Source: Clostridiales bacterium
GTDB taxonomy: Bacteria > Bacillota > Clostridia > DUOD01
DNA: 64,000 nt
NCBI GenBank assembly: GCA_012838995.1
Contig: DUOD01000024.1
Span: forward strand, 1-64,000
Direction: 5' to 3'
Shown here: positions 5,201 to 44,087 of the stretch, piece after piece
Position numbering within the stretch: the stretch's first letter is position 1
How the letters are laid out: each line of letters opens with the position of its first letter
The notes under the pieces: generated by a model
What the model was told of the DNA's origin: nothing
Database searches by the model: none
The model's input: only the letters and a program-made list of their open reading frames with translations
Position numbers and translations under genes: made by a program

Positions 5201-6601
5201 TTGGATATGGATATATTCTTGAACAAATACCGGGAGGAGATAATATCCTCTCTTAAAGAATTTATAAAAATACCCAGTGTAATCAGCCCTCCCCGTCCGG
5301 GAGCACCCTTTGGCCCAAAGGTTGCTAAGGCGCTGGATTATGTATTAAACCTAGGCGATAGCATGGGTTTTGAGGTTAAAAACCTGGACGGGTATGCAGG
5401 ACACGTACAATACGGTGAGGGCGACGAAATTCTGGGCATCCTAACCCATGTCGATGTTGTACCGGCAGGCAGCGGCTGGACCTATCCGCCCTTTGAGGGA
5501 CAGGTGCATGATAACAGGATATACGGTAGGGGAGCGGTGGATGATAAGGGTCCAGGCATTGCCGCCCTTTATGCCCTTTTGGCATTAAAGGAGCAAGGCT
5601 TTATGCCCCAAAGAACCATACGCATCATATACGGCGCCAATGAAGAGAACGACTGGGAGTGTGTTAATTATTACTTTAGCCGTGAGAAAATGCCCCAAAT
5701 AGGTCTGGCCTTTGACGGTAGTTATCCCGTTATAAACGGCGAAAAGGGCGTCCTTGTCATTCATATGGAAAAGGATATAGAATGGAGGGCACCCCGATTT
5801 TCCATTGAAGACATTAAGGGTGGGACGGCTGCCAACGCGGTACCCGATTATTGTTGCTGTACTATTGAGATAAGGGATCAAGGCCTTGGAGGAGAGGTGG
5901 CCGATCTCCAAAGGGCCTTTGTTGAGGATACCGGTTATGATGTATCGATAACATCAATGGACGGGGGAAGGTATAGGGTGGAAAGCCGGGGACAGCCGGC
6001 CCACGGCAGCACACCCGAAAAGGGCAAAAACGCCATTGGCCGGCTTTTTAAGTTTTTGCATTTTTTGGACAGCGGCGATGAACACCTAAACGAGGTATTG
6101 TTCCATATAGGTCGGTTGGCCATGGACCACAACGGTCGGGATACCGGTTTATTTGTAAAAGACGAGGTATCCGGATCCATGACGGTAAATGTAGGTATTG
6201 TAGGCAAGAATAATCAAGCCATATACCTTAAGGTAAATACCCGGTATCCCGTGACTTATTCAATGGATCGGGCGGTGGAAGACTTTACCCGAATGGCCGA
6301 GGGGCTGGGATACAAATGCAAGGTGGAAAACAGGCTGGAGCCCCTATATGTTAAGGAAGACAGCTACATTATAAATATTTTAAAGGACATATATCAAAAA
6401 ACAACCGGGCAGCCGCCCTATGCCTTTACCATAGGCGGTGCCACCTATGCCAGGGCCCTCAAAAACGGAGTGGCCTTTGGACCCACGTTCCCCGGCCGGC
6501 CGGAGCTGGCCCATCAGAGGGACGAGTACATGGATATACAGGATCTTATGACCAATATAAAAATATATACAGAAGCAATGATGAGACTTTCTATGGCATA
6601 G
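5201..6601 (+). CDS. pepV: Sapep/PepV-like M20 dipeptidase
   Basis: GILTHVDVVPAGSGWTYPPFEGQVHDNRIYGRGAVDDKGPGIAALYALLALK metal-site motifs; ATG at 5207 is an alternative start. Confidence 0.88.
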   Translation: MDMDIFLNKYREEIISSLKEFIKIPSVISPPRPGAPFGPKVAKALDYVLNLGDSMGFEVKNLDGYAGHVQYGEGDEILGILTHVDVVPAGSGWTYPPFEGQVHDNRIYGRGAVDDKGPGIAALYALLALKEQGFMPQRTIRIIYGANEENDWECVNYYFSREKMPQIGLAFDGSYPVINGEKGVLVIHMEKDIEWRAPRFSIEDIKGGTAANAVPDYCCCTIEIRDQGLGGEVADLQRAFVEDTGYDVSITSMDGGRYRVESRGQPAHGSTPEKGKNAIGRLFKFLHFLDSGDEHLNEVLFHIGRLAMDHNGRDTGLFVKDEVSGSMTVNVGIVGKNNQAIYLKVNTRYPVTYSMDRAVEDFTRMAEGLGYKCKVENRLEPLYVKEDSYIINILKDIYQKTTGQPPYAFTIGGATYARALKNGVAFGPTFPGRPELAHQRDEYMDIQDLMTNIKIYTEAMMRLSMA

Positions 6602-6697
6602 CCTATTTAATCCTTTGCCTTCACCATTTAATTGCAAAGGGAATATATATATTATAGATATCTAATATAATATACCTTTGCAGGAGGTGATAAGGTA

Positions 6698-7618
6698 ATG
6701 GATGGTGAATATGCCGATTACCGTGATTATGAGGAAGTAGAAGCACAACAGCAGTGCCCTGCCGGCACTTTTTCATATACCGTACAGCCTGGCGATACCG
6801 TGTTTGCCATAGCCCAGCGGTTTAATACCACGGTGGATGCCATCGTGGCGGTAAACCCTGGACTGGACCCCAATGTCATTTTTGTAGGCCAAAGGATATG
6901 CATACCCAGTGTCGTGCCACCGCCGGGTGCATGTCCGCCGGGCACCTTTGCCTATACCGTGGTGCAGGGGGACACCCTGTTCACCCTGGCTTTAAGATTT
7001 GGCACTACGGTGGCTGCCATTATTGCAGCTAATCCGGGGATCGATCCCAACGTACTCTTTGTAGGCCAGAGGATTTGTATACCCAGAGTACCCGCTCCGC
7101 CGCCGGCAGTATGTCCGCCGGGTACCTTTGCCTATACAGTACAGCCTGGTGATACCTTATTCGCCATAGCCCGACGGTTTAATACTACAGTGGCGGCCAT
7201 AATTGCAGCAAATCCCGGTATAGATCCTAATGTCATATTCATAGGTCAGAGAATCTGCATACCCAGTGTTGCGCCACCGGGGGCATGTCCGCCGGGCACC
7301 TTTGCCTATACGGTACAGCCGGGCGATACCGTGTTTGCCATAGCCCAGCGGTTTAATACTACGGTAGCTGCCATTGTTGCGGTAAATCCGGGCCTGGATC
7401 CCAATGTCATTTTTGTAGGCCAAAGGATATGTATACCCAGTACCGCACCACCGAGAGTATGTCCACCGGGCACCTTTGCCTATACAGTACAGCCTGGTGA
7501 TACCCTGTTCCTAATTGCCCGAAGATTCAATACTACGGCGTTTGCAATAATAGCATTAAACCCGGGCATTATCCCGGGCAGGTTGGCCATAGGCCAAAGG
7601 TTGTGTATACCCCGGTAG
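6698..7618 (+). CDS. LysM-repeat protein with five tandem LysM domains and no obvious signal peptide
   Basis: Five copies of CPPGTFAYTVQPGDTLFxIARRFNTTVAAIIAxNPGIDPNVIFVGQRICIP; good RBS gcaggaggtgataagg. Confidence 0.9.
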   Translation: MDGEYADYRDYEEVEAQQQCPAGTFSYTVQPGDTVFAIAQRFNTTVDAIVAVNPGLDPNVIFVGQRICIPSVVPPPGACPPGTFAYTVVQGDTLFTLALRFGTTVAAIIAANPGIDPNVLFVGQRICIPRVPAPPPAVCPPGTFAYTVQPGDTLFAIARRFNTTVAAIIAANPGIDPNVIFIGQRICIPSVAPPGACPPGTFAYTVQPGDTVFAIAQRFNTTVAAIVAVNPGLDPNVIFVGQRICIPSTAPPRVCPPGTFAYTVQPGDTLFLIARRFNTTAFAIIALNPGIIPGRLAIGQRLCIPR

Positions 7619-14868: not shown

Positions 14869-15020
14869 GGTTAATTTCCTTAATTATACAAAAACTTTTA
14901 ATTTAATTTTATAGTATATCCATATGTACATCAATAGATAAGATGCATTAAAAAGGTTTAAAGGTATTGCAATATGTAAAGGAATGTATTAGAATAGAGT
15001 TTAAATATTTTTACTTTTAA

Positions 15021-15305
15021 TAAAGGCTGTGAAGGGAAGAGTAGGTCTTTGGGGCATTATTTCCAGAGAGCCGGGGAAGCTGCAAACCGGTAATAATGAT
15101 AAAGACTGAAGGTCATCCCGGAGCCGTGGAGCTGAAAGGACCAGTAGGTTCCAACGGTGACACCCGTTATAGTGTAGGATATAACCAGGTTTTTGTCTGG
15201 CGTATCTAATGAGGTCGATTTTATATCGATAAACAAGGGTGGTACCACGGAGGTAGGAGTATCCTTCGTCCCTAGAGCGGTTGGGGATGGGGGATTTTAT
15301 TTTTC
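15021..15305 (+). promoter_or_regulatory. T-box riboswitch leader upstream of ilvB (probable Val specifier GUC at 15112-15114)
   Basis: Stem I elements GAAGAGTA, AGAGAG, GTCTTT/AAAGAC; T-box core AACAAGGGTGGTACCACGG; specifier-loop 3' side TGAAGGTCATCCC reads GAA-G-GTC-A. Confidence 0.93.
15261..15304 (+). terminator. T-box leader intrinsic terminator
   Basis: ATCCTTCGTCCCT agagcggt TGGGGATGGGGGAT (with G-U pairs), then TTTATTTTT. Confidence 0.8.
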
Positions 15306-34360: not shown

Positions 34361-34436
34361 GACCCATTAGCTCAGTTGGTAGAGCACTTGACTTTTAATC
34401 AAGGAGTCCGGCGTTCGAATCGCCGATGGGTCACCA
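34361..34436 (+). tRNA. tRNA-Lys(TTT), CCA encoded
   Basis: Cloverleaf GACCCAT...ATGGGTC; anticodon loop CTTTTAA; TTCGAAT T-loop. Confidence 0.97.
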
Positions 34437-34440
34437 TTGT

Positions 34441-34515
34441 GGCCCCTTGGTCAAGTGGTTAAGACACCGCCCTTTCACGGCGGTAACAGGGGTTCGAATC
34501 CCCTAGGGGTCACCA
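34441..34515 (+). tRNA. tRNA-Glu(TTC), CCA encoded
   Basis: Acceptor GGCCCCT/AGGGGTC; anticodon loop CTTTCAC. Confidence 0.97.
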
Positions 34516-34587
34516 TTTTATAAAAAATCGGATATCAGAAGTCAGATGTCCGCTTGAACTTGTTTCAAGTCTTTTACATCTGTAATA

Positions 34588-34664
34588 GGCCCAGTAGTTC
34601 AGTTGGTTAGAACGCCAGCCTGTCACGCTGGAGGTCGAGGGTTCGAGTCCCTTCTGGGTCGCCA
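34588..34664 (+). tRNA. tRNA-Asp(GTC), CCA encoded
   Basis: Acceptor GGCCCAG/CTGGGTC; anticodon loop CTGTCAC. Confidence 0.97.
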
Positions 34665-34665
34665 C

Positions 34666-34741
34666 GCTGGTGTAGCTCAATTGGCAGAGCAGCTGATTTG
34701 TAATCAGCAGGTTGCGGGTTCGAGTCCCATCACCAGCTCCA
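34666..34741 (+). tRNA. tRNA-Thr(TGT), CCA encoded
   Basis: Acceptor GCTGGTG/CACCAGC; anticodon loop TTTGTAA. Confidence 0.97.
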
Positions 34742-34823
34742 AAACTGAATATAAGAATGAGGCGAATTGGGAATCATAAAGGCGGACATGTTATCCGATT
34801 TCTGATATCCTGTATTGAAACAC

Positions 34824-34908
34824 GGAGGGATACCCAAGTGGCCAAAGGGGGCAGACTGTAAATCTGTTGGCTCAGCCTTCGGTGGTTCGAATCCACCTCC
34901 CTCCACCA
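34824..34908 (+). tRNA. tRNA-Tyr(GTA), long variable arm, CCA encoded
   Basis: Acceptor GGAGGGA/TCCCTCC; anticodon loop CTGTAAA; class II variable arm. Confidence 0.97.
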
Positions 34909-42172: not shown

Positions 42173-42220
42173 AAAATAACCCACGGCATGGTTCATCGAA
42201 CCGGGCCGTGGGTTATTTTT
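42173..42220 (+). terminator. Intrinsic terminator after the M23 peptidase gene
   Basis: AAAATAACCCACGGC atGGTTCatcGAACCgg GCCGTGGGTTATTTTT. Confidence 0.9.
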
Positions 42221-42313: not shown

Positions 42314-43783
42314 ATGCGAGACTTTATAGGTGATACGGATATACGTTTATATTTGGGCGATATAACCGGTCTTCAAGCAGGGGCCATAGTCAATGCCGCC
42401 AATACCAAGCTGTATATGGGCTCGGGGGTGGCCGGTGCCATAAAGAAAAAAGGCGGGGATTGTGTAGAACGGGAGGCCACGGCCCAAGGACCCATCCAGG
42501 TAGGAGATACAGTGGTTACCGGTGGCGGCAAATTGCCCGTCAAGTATGTTATTCATGCCGCGGTCATGGATTTAGACTTAAAAACAAGCGGTGATATTAT
42601 TGCCCGGGCGACTTTCAATTCCCTGGACCGGGCGGATCGTCTGGGAGTGGATACCGTGGCATTGCCCGCCCTGGGCACCGGTGTCGGCGGGTATCCCATG
42701 GAGGACTGTGCCCAAATTATGATTAAACAAATAAAAAAATATATGCTGGAACATAATAACTCCCTAAGGGAGATAATACTGGTACTGAATAACAGCAATG
42801 CCTTTTATAAGTTCAAAAAGGTACTTTATGATGTAGAAGACGAAATCGCCCGGGACAGGGCCCGGGGCTGTCTGGTGGGCGGGGCGGTAGGAGATGCCTT
42901 AGGAATGCCGGCCGAGGCCCTGACACCCACACAGATCAAGGAATACTACGGTAATATTGACGGATATGTAAACCCAAAGGACGGACTGGCCTGTTCCCGG
43001 CTGAGGGCAGGACAGTATACCGACGATACGCAAATGACCATAGCGGTAGCCGAGTCCATCGTCGAAAGGTGTTCCTTTAATTCCAGAGACGTGGCTAACA
43101 AACTTATGGAATGGGGCACGTCCGACGATGTAAGGTGTGCCGGAAGGGCAACCATGGAAGCCGTGGGCAATCTAAAGAAGGGAATTGAGTGGACCAGGAG
43201 CGGCGTATCTTCGGCCGGTAACGGTTGTGTTGTAAGGATATCCCCCATCGGTATAATTAATATGGGCTATGGCTCCACAAAGCTGCATAATGAGGCCAGG
43301 GCTTGCTGCATTATAACCCATACCCACCAAATAGCCGTTGCTGCGTCCATTGCCCTAGCAAGCGGTATTTCCTATCTGGTATATAAAGGCCATCATTTAT
43401 TAAGCGGTCAGCACTTTATTGATATTATATGCGAACAGATACAGGAAATATGCACCGAGCTTACAAGTGTTTTAAAATCCATACCCCCTCTGTTGGATAG
43501 GGAGCCCAAAGAAGCTTTTGAAGTTTTGGGTACCGGCGGCTATGTTTTGGAAACCCTGCCGGCGGCGATATTTTGTTTCTTGAAATATCCAAGGGATTTT
43601 GAAAAAACGGTGGTTTGTGCTGCCAACGCCGGAAACGACACCGATTCCCTTGCGGCTATTGCAGGCAATCTCAGCGGGGCTTATAATGGATATGGCAATA
43701 TACCCAATAAGTTTTTGAAAACCTTGGAGGGCAGGAATTATATTCTAGAGCTTGCCGATAATTTGTTTAGCATTAGGAGATAG
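42314..43783 (+). CDS. Macrodomain fused to ADP-ribosylglycohydrolase (DraG/ARH-like)
   Basis: Macro: GDITGLQAGAIVNAANTKLYMGSGVAGAIKKKGG, ALPALGTGVGGYP; ARH: RGCLVGGAVGDALGMPAEA, YTDDTQMTIAVAES, NAGNDTDSLAAIAGNLSGAYNG. ORF opens at 42284; MRDFIGDTD at 42314 is the likely start. Confidence 0.9.
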   Translation: MRDFIGDTDIRLYLGDITGLQAGAIVNAANTKLYMGSGVAGAIKKKGGDCVEREATAQGPIQVGDTVVTGGGKLPVKYVIHAAVMDLDLKTSGDIIARATFNSLDRADRLGVDTVALPALGTGVGGYPMEDCAQIMIKQIKKYMLEHNNSLREIILVLNNSNAFYKFKKVLYDVEDEIARDRARGCLVGGAVGDALGMPAEALTPTQIKEYYGNIDGYVNPKDGLACSRLRAGQYTDDTQMTIAVAESIVERCSFNSRDVANKLMEWGTSDDVRCAGRATMEAVGNLKKGIEWTRSGVSSAGNGCVVRISPIGIINMGYGSTKLHNEARACCIITHTHQIAVAASIALASGISYLVYKGHHLLSGQHFIDIICEQIQEICTELTSVLKSIPPLLDREPKEAFEVLGTGGYVLETLPAAIFCFLKYPRDFEKTVVCAANAGNDTDSLAAIAGNLSGAYNGYGNIPNKFLKTLEGRNYILELADNLFSIRR

Positions 43784-43794
43784 GGGTGTATAGT

Positions 43795-44013
43795 ATGGCA
43801 TTAATTGATTTTAAATGCACAAAGTGTGGGTATAAATTTTTTGAATTGGTAAATTTTAAGGATAGGGACAAGGTTAAATGTCCCCAGTGTAAAAGCGGAG
43901 GTGTGCAACAAATATACGAAGGTCGATGTTACTTTGGCAGCCCCAAAAAAGAAATTGGTCCGGCCTGTGAAGGCTGTGACAGGGCCCGCGTGTGCAATGA
44001 CATGTGCCAATAA
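43795..44013 (+). CDS. Small zinc-ribbon (FmdB-like) protein
   Basis: MALIDFKCTKCGYKFFELVNFKDRDKVKCPQCKSGGVQQIYEGRCYFGSPKK; CxxC pairs; start likely the second ATG. Confidence 0.75.
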   Translation: MALIDFKCTKCGYKFFELVNFKDRDKVKCPQCKSGGVQQIYEGRCYFGSPKKEIGPACEGCDRARVCNDMCQ

Positions 44014-44087
44014 TTACCGATGAAGTTGACATAATTACGTTATATAATATACTTGTATCCCTTAGGTAATGAGAGAAGGATGCAAGT

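What the first reader, a model, noticed from the sequence alone, without database searches (positions are those of the whole stretch)
42314..44013. Macrodomain-ADP-ribosylglycohydrolase fusion coupled to a zinc-ribbon gene
One 489-499 aa ORF carries an N-terminal macrodomain (NAAN...GSGVAGAI, GTGVGGYP) and a C-terminal DraG/ARH domain retaining metal-site motifs (GDALGMP, YTDDTQMT, NAGNDTDS). Two different de-ADP-ribosylating folds in one chain suggest processing of a compound substrate or complementary linkages. A FmdB-like zinc-ribbon gene begins 2-11 nt after its stop and may be part of the unit. No ADP-ribosyltransferase is visible within 10 kb, so its target is open.
Basis: partly seen in the sequence, partly recalled or inferred. 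Interest (0 to 1): 0.68.

Follow-up and report, generated by a model that had tools for sequence, protein, structure and literature searches.

The report
Macrodomain–ADP-ribosylhydrolase fusion, reader plus eraser
A bacterial protein joins two ADP-ribose-handling domains in one chain; only the second keeps a full set of known catalytic residues, and the neighbouring zinc-ribbon gene belongs to an older, unrelated gene cluster.

Summary
The fusion is real: one 489-aa ORF (42314-43783, +) with a Macro domain (residues 26-136) and an ARH/DraG domain (185-465), each far above Pfam cut-off. The interpretation needs correcting on three points. (1) The ARH half keeps every metal ligand. The macro half is TTHA0132-type, not MacroD-type: the MacroD Asp, His and distal-ribose Tyr are Ala40, Lys44 and Gly125, as in its stand-alone relatives. 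Tyr-to-Ala abolishes activity in E. coli YmdB. The likeliest reading is an ADP-ribose reader coupled to an ARH eraser, not two erasers. (2) The zinc ribbon is not part of the unit: in two other genomes its homologues lie in an M23/zinc-ribbon/peptidase-MA/WalRK locus with no macro-ARH gene. (3) Macro+ARH chains were noted in bacteria in 2014 but not characterised. A second one here (L072) is built from different macro and ARH subfamilies, so the architecture arose more than once; in other genomes the nearest halves are separate genes. The genome has one CobB-like sirtuin and no DarT or KptA hit; other transferase searches were uninformative. The substrate stays open: O-acetyl-ADP-ribose or residual mono-ADP-ribose adducts are the best guesses.

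The parts
42314..43783 (+). macro-ARH fusion gene (489 aa)
   Evidence: single open frame, two Pfam domains over cut-off
42314..42829 (+). N-terminal TTHA0132-type macrodomain (residues 1-172); D16, N27 and N30 kept; A40, K44, G125 in place of the MacroD Asp, His, Tyr
42830..42850 (+). short linker (residues about 173-179), modelled as part of one continuous helix (161-200) that runs into the ARH domain
   Evidence: AlphaFold2 model; block pLDDT 70-98 from residue 161 to 200, macro side poorly modelled
42848..43780 (+). C-terminal ARH/DraG-fold domain (residues 179-489); ligands E201, T236, D237, D238, D442, D444, S445 kept; C275 at the DraG Asp97 position
   Evidence: fold match to 1t5j, TMt 0.91
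42187..42210 (+). possible terminator between the upstream M23 gene and the fusion gene
   Evidence: consensus scan only
43795..44013 (+). FmdB-like zinc ribbon; adjacent, but judged not part of the system
   Evidence: PF09723/TIGR02605; synteny with M23/peptidase-MA/WalRK elsewhere
44026..44053 (+). promoter-like site (TTGACA-16-TATACT) before the downstream peptidase-MA gene
   Evidence: consensus scan only, 11 of 12

Best explanation
The protein is a single-chain ADP-ribose eraser with a built-in reader. The C-terminal ARH domain, with a dinuclear metal site, hydrolyses ADP-ribose from an adduct. The N-terminal TTHA0132-type macrodomain mainly binds ADP-ribose and brings the ARH site to ADP-ribosylated or ADP-ribose-bearing targets, with weak hydrolysis at most. 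It acts as a chromosomal clean-up enzyme, not as an antitoxin. Shown: the domains, the residues, the gene context. Inferred: activity, division of labour, substrate. Plausible substrates are O-acetyl-ADP-ribose from the genome's one CobB-like sirtuin, or O-linked mono-ADP-ribose. The zinc ribbon is a neighbour only.
For: All ARH metal ligands are kept, and E201, T236, D237, D238 and D444 are invariant among 18 aligned proteins. The fold model matches ARH structures. The macro domain groups with TTHA0132, L115, L116 and L015 at SH-aLRT 100; L115, L116 and TTHA0132 share Ala for Asp, a residue other than His, and Gly for Tyr. In the literature Asn30, Asp40 and Tyr134 of OiMacroD carry the mechanism, and Tyr-to-Ala in YmdB abolishes activity (PMC5413906). 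Asp16, the glycine loop and the phosphate loop remain, consistent with binding. NCBIfam's best macro model is 'ADP-ribose-binding protein', though below its cut-off. One sirtuin, no DarT or KptA hit; no toxin gene adjacent.
Against: Af1521 lacks the Asp and is active, and a substrate-assisted mechanism without it has been proposed, so the macro half could still hydrolyse. The macro half modelled poorly because that alignment held no macro homologues. No biochemical data exist. The substrate is not determined by sequence, and the ARH branch position is unresolved in the tree.
Confidence: 0.5

Rival explanations
1. Both domains are catalytic: an 'all-in-one' eraser in which the macro half cleaves ester-linked (Glu/Asp or acyl) ADP-ribose and the ARH half cleaves O- or N-glycosidic links.
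For: Proposed for bacterial ARH3-like + MacroD-like chains by Perina et al. 2014 (PMC4245714). Both Asn and the glycine loop are kept; Af1521 without the Asp is active.
Against: Asp, His and Tyr are all replaced here, and the Tyr loss is the one reported to abolish activity in YmdB. The 2014 statement concerned MacroD-like domains, which this is not.
Confidence: 0.25
2. A dedicated O-acetyl-ADP-ribose recycling enzyme: sirtuin product isomers (1'', 2'', 3'') are bound by the macro half and cleaved by the ARH half.
For: One CobB-like sirtuin with the VHG motif is the only NAD-dependent ADP-ribose-transfer enzyme found; ARH3 accepts OAADPr (PMC11664928).
Against: The sirtuin is on another contig, not linked; a stand-alone MacroD-like protein (L113) may already do this job.
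Confidence: 0.13
3. A nucleic-acid ADP-ribose repair enzyme, by analogy with relatives in which the ARH domain is fused to a MUG/TDG-type DNA glycosylase.
For: L118 and L119 are ARH+MUG fusions among the nearest ARH relatives.
Against: No DarT; a clade of the window ARH with them is not supported (AU p 0.046); no DNA-binding part in the fusion.
Confidence: 0.07
4. An immunity or antitoxin protein against an ADP-ribosyltransferase toxin, as Tri1 or DarG.
For: ARH and macro domains both serve as antitoxins in known systems (6dre, 8za7, DarG).
Against: No transferase gene beside it, a housekeeping neighbourhood, a genome without a DarT hit.
Confidence: 0.05

Closest known systems
Bacterial ARH3-like + MacroD-like combination proteins (Perina et al. 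2014, PMC4245714)
   Same: macro and ARH domains in one bacterial chain; no substrate known
   Different: the macro domain here is TTHA0132-type and lacks the MacroD catalytic residues
L072 of genome G253 (SseB + MacroD-type + DraG/Tri1-type ARH, 665 aa)
   Same: macro then ARH order in one chain, same class
   Different: different macro subfamily and different ARH subfamily: an independent fusion
TTHA0132 (2dx6), Thermus thermophilus macrodomain
   Same: closest solved relative of the N-terminal half; same Ala and Gly substitutions
   Different: stand-alone; no characterised activity that I found
MJ1187 (1t5j), ARH3 and DraG
   Same: closest solved structure, and best-studied relatives, of the C-terminal half; same metal ligands
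   Different: stand-alone; the DraG-specific Asp97 is Cys275 here (it is absent from ARH3 too)

Membership tests
ADP-ribosylhydrolase (ARH/DraG, PF03747) | Pfam score over the curated cut-off across the whole domain | tested here: met
   244 bits against 26.2, profile 1-286/287
ADP-ribosylhydrolase (ARH/DraG, PF03747) | dinuclear metal ligands Glu, Thr-Asp-Asp, Asp-x-Asp-(Thr/Ser) | tested here: met
   E201, T236-D237-D238, D442, D444, S445
ADP-ribosylhydrolase (ARH/DraG, PF03747) | metal-dependent hydrolysis of an ADP-ribose adduct | not testable with these tools
   needs an assay
DraG proper | Asp97 of R. rubrum DraG | tested here: not met
   aligned residue is C275; NCBIfam TIGR02662 130 bits, cut-off 337
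MacroD-type macrodomain | Asn, Asp, Tyr (and helper Asn, His) of the OiMacroD/YmdB active site | tested here: not met
   N27 and N30 kept; A40, K44 and G125 in place of Asp, His, Tyr (PMC5413906)
TTHA0132-type macrodomain | placed with TTHA0132 in a tree, with its loop residues | tested here: met
   SH-aLRT 100, GVAGAI and GTGVGG motifs
Macro+ARH 'all-in-one' eraser (Perina 2014) | both domains in one chain | tested here: met
Macro+ARH 'all-in-one' eraser (Perina 2014) | essential residues of both domains conserved | tested here: not met
   ARH yes, macro no
DarTG or ART-ARH toxin-immunity pair | adjacent ADP-ribosyltransferase | tested here: not met
   no transferase seen among neighbours; no DarT in the genome

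The most novel reading that the evidence does not exclude
A built-in reader-eraser: a catalytically silent macrodomain, joined by a rigid helix to an ARH hydrolase, steers it to a specific ADP-ribosylated target of an unknown bacterial transferase, and macro-ARH coupling arose independently more than once.
Probability: 0.2. Interest if true: 0.6.

Novelty: new variant of a known kind. Interest (0 to 1): 0.36.

Why it matters
Readers and erasers of ADP-ribose are often separate proteins. A natural one-chain pair whose macro half has lost the known catalytic residues gives a simple system for asking whether a macrodomain can direct an ARH enzyme, and whether bacteria without obvious transferases still make ADP-ribose adducts.

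Tried and rejected
Zinc ribbon as a partner: rejected by synteny. Chimera or frameshift artefact: not supported; one continuous frame, and both halves are close to the neighbours in GC and GC3. Macro domain decayed only in the fusion: rejected, the same substitutions occur in stand-alone relatives. Viral or plasmid origin: no record covers both domains. Grouping with ARH+MUG proteins: not supported. PARP, DRAT and ART family searches of the genome gave no hit, but the controls were silent too, so they prove nothing.

Full report
Observation. The ORF at 42314-43783 is a continuous 489-aa frame. Pfam finds Macro at residues 26-136 and ADP_ribosyl_GH at 185-465, both far over their cut-offs. By sequence the closest solved structures are TTHA0132 (2dx6) for the first half and MJ1187 (1t5j) for the second. 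This is well beyond chance. ATG 42314 is a reasonable start; ATG 42284 is also in frame.

Catalytic residues, ARH half. In the alignment with MJ1187, ARH3, DraG and Tri1 all the metal ligands are present: E201, T236-D237-D238, D442, D444, with Ser445 for Thr as in MJ1187. The DraG-specific Asp97 position is Cys275, so on that marker it resembles ARH3, which also lacks the Asp (review PMC7050489). The AlphaFold2 model of this half is confident (block pLDDT mostly above 90) and matches 1t5j with TMt 0.91. In the tree the window ARH sits on an unresolved branch, outside the supported DraG/Tri1, ARH3 and MJ1187 groups.

Catalytic residues, macro half. For OiMacroD the proposed mechanism rests on Asn30, Asp40 and Tyr134, helped by Asn27 and His44 (PMC5413906). 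The fusion keeps both Asn, but has Ala40, Lys44 and Gly125. The same paper reports that Tyr-to-Ala in E. coli YmdB abolishes activity and notes that TTHA0132 naturally lacks the Asp. The window macro groups with TTHA0132 and the stand-alone L115, L116 and L015 at SH-aLRT 100, and L115, L116 and TTHA0132 share these substitutions. So this is a subfamily trait, not decay. Loss of the Asp alone would not be decisive, since Af1521 is active without it; the joint loss of Asp, His and Tyr makes a reader more likely than an eraser. Asp16 and the glycine and phosphate loops that bind ADP-ribose are kept.

Origin. In genome G392 (same phylum) the nearest ARH (40%) and a near macro (53%) are separate genes on different contigs; G531 has the macro alone at 54%. 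Three samples of 60, 391 and 399 genomes (overlapping in part), with E-value limits of 0.001, 1e-20 and 1e-25, gave one match across both domains outside the window's genome: G253. This is a lower bound. That protein, L072, is SseB + MacroD-type macro + DraG/Tri1-type ARH. Forcing its ARH together with the window's is rejected (AU p 9e-6), and its macro lies in the other main group. In 28 genomes of G253's order the close homologues of L072 are single-domain. The two fusions are therefore most simply read as independent. No phage, plasmid or viral contig found covers both domains.

Zinc ribbon. It is an FmdB-like gene. Homologues occur in 84 of 300 phylum genomes. None of the 19 best homologue loci outside the window has an ARH or macro neighbour within about 1.5 kb. 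In G657 the order is zinc ribbon, peptidase MA, a response regulator and a kinase (WalRK-like), YycH, a further gene, MurA, with an M23 gene some 6 kb upstream; in G430 it is M23, zinc ribbon, peptidase MA, response regulator, kinase. The window has M23, [macro-ARH], zinc ribbon, peptidase MA, MurA. The macro-ARH gene thus sits inside an older cell-envelope locus. A shared transcript with the zinc ribbon is possible, as a terminator-like site lies upstream (42187) and a promoter-like site lies after the ribbon (44026), but a shared function is not supported.

Writers in the genome. One sirtuin, CobB-like, with the VHG and four-Cys motifs of deacylases, on another contig. No DarT and no KptA, with working controls. 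PARP, DRAT and ART were not found, but their controls were also silent. A second, stand-alone MacroD-like protein is present.

Prior knowledge. Perina et al. [quoted passage not shown] I found no biochemical study of such a protein in the library searched. So the architecture is known in outline; I found no description of a TTHA0132-type version with a probable reader half.

Verdict. A real fusion, a new variant of a known kind, of moderate interest. The ARH half is very probably an active hydrolase; the macro half is more likely a reader; the zinc ribbon is a bystander; the substrate remains open.

Noticed in passing
L118:5745-7175 and L119:6359-7819: ARH domains fused to a MUG/TDG-type DNA glycosylase in two distantly related genomes (G434, G036). 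I found no description of this fusion; it hints at DNA-linked ADP-ribose repair.
   Followed up: partly
L113:2988-3464 (own genome, contig C40): Stand-alone MacroD-like macrodomain with Cys for the catalytic Asp and Phe for His but the Tyr kept (GGGVCGAIF, GIYGYP); this variant recurs in many class members.
   Followed up: partly
L072:1036-3033: SseB + MacroD-type macro + DraG-type ARH in one 665-aa chain, with the second Asn of NxxN changed to Lys.
   Followed up: partly
L073:1021-2565 and L074:1036-2565: ARH domain followed by what looks like a TPR-like repeat region, beside aspartate carbamoyltransferase-like genes.
   Followed up: no
L115:6241-7182 and L116:5869-11702: Stand-alone TTHA0132-type macrodomain genes lie next to (L115) or within 5 kb of (L116) a UPF0047 (YjbQ)-like gene in two genomes.
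   Followed up: no
L113:3815-4960 and 6050-6922: Two similar octopine-dehydrogenase-like genes flank an unidentified 369-aa gene in the window's own genome.
   Followed up: no
window 15020-15276 and 34361-34905: A T-box leader and a cluster of five tRNA genes (Rfam).
   Followed up: no
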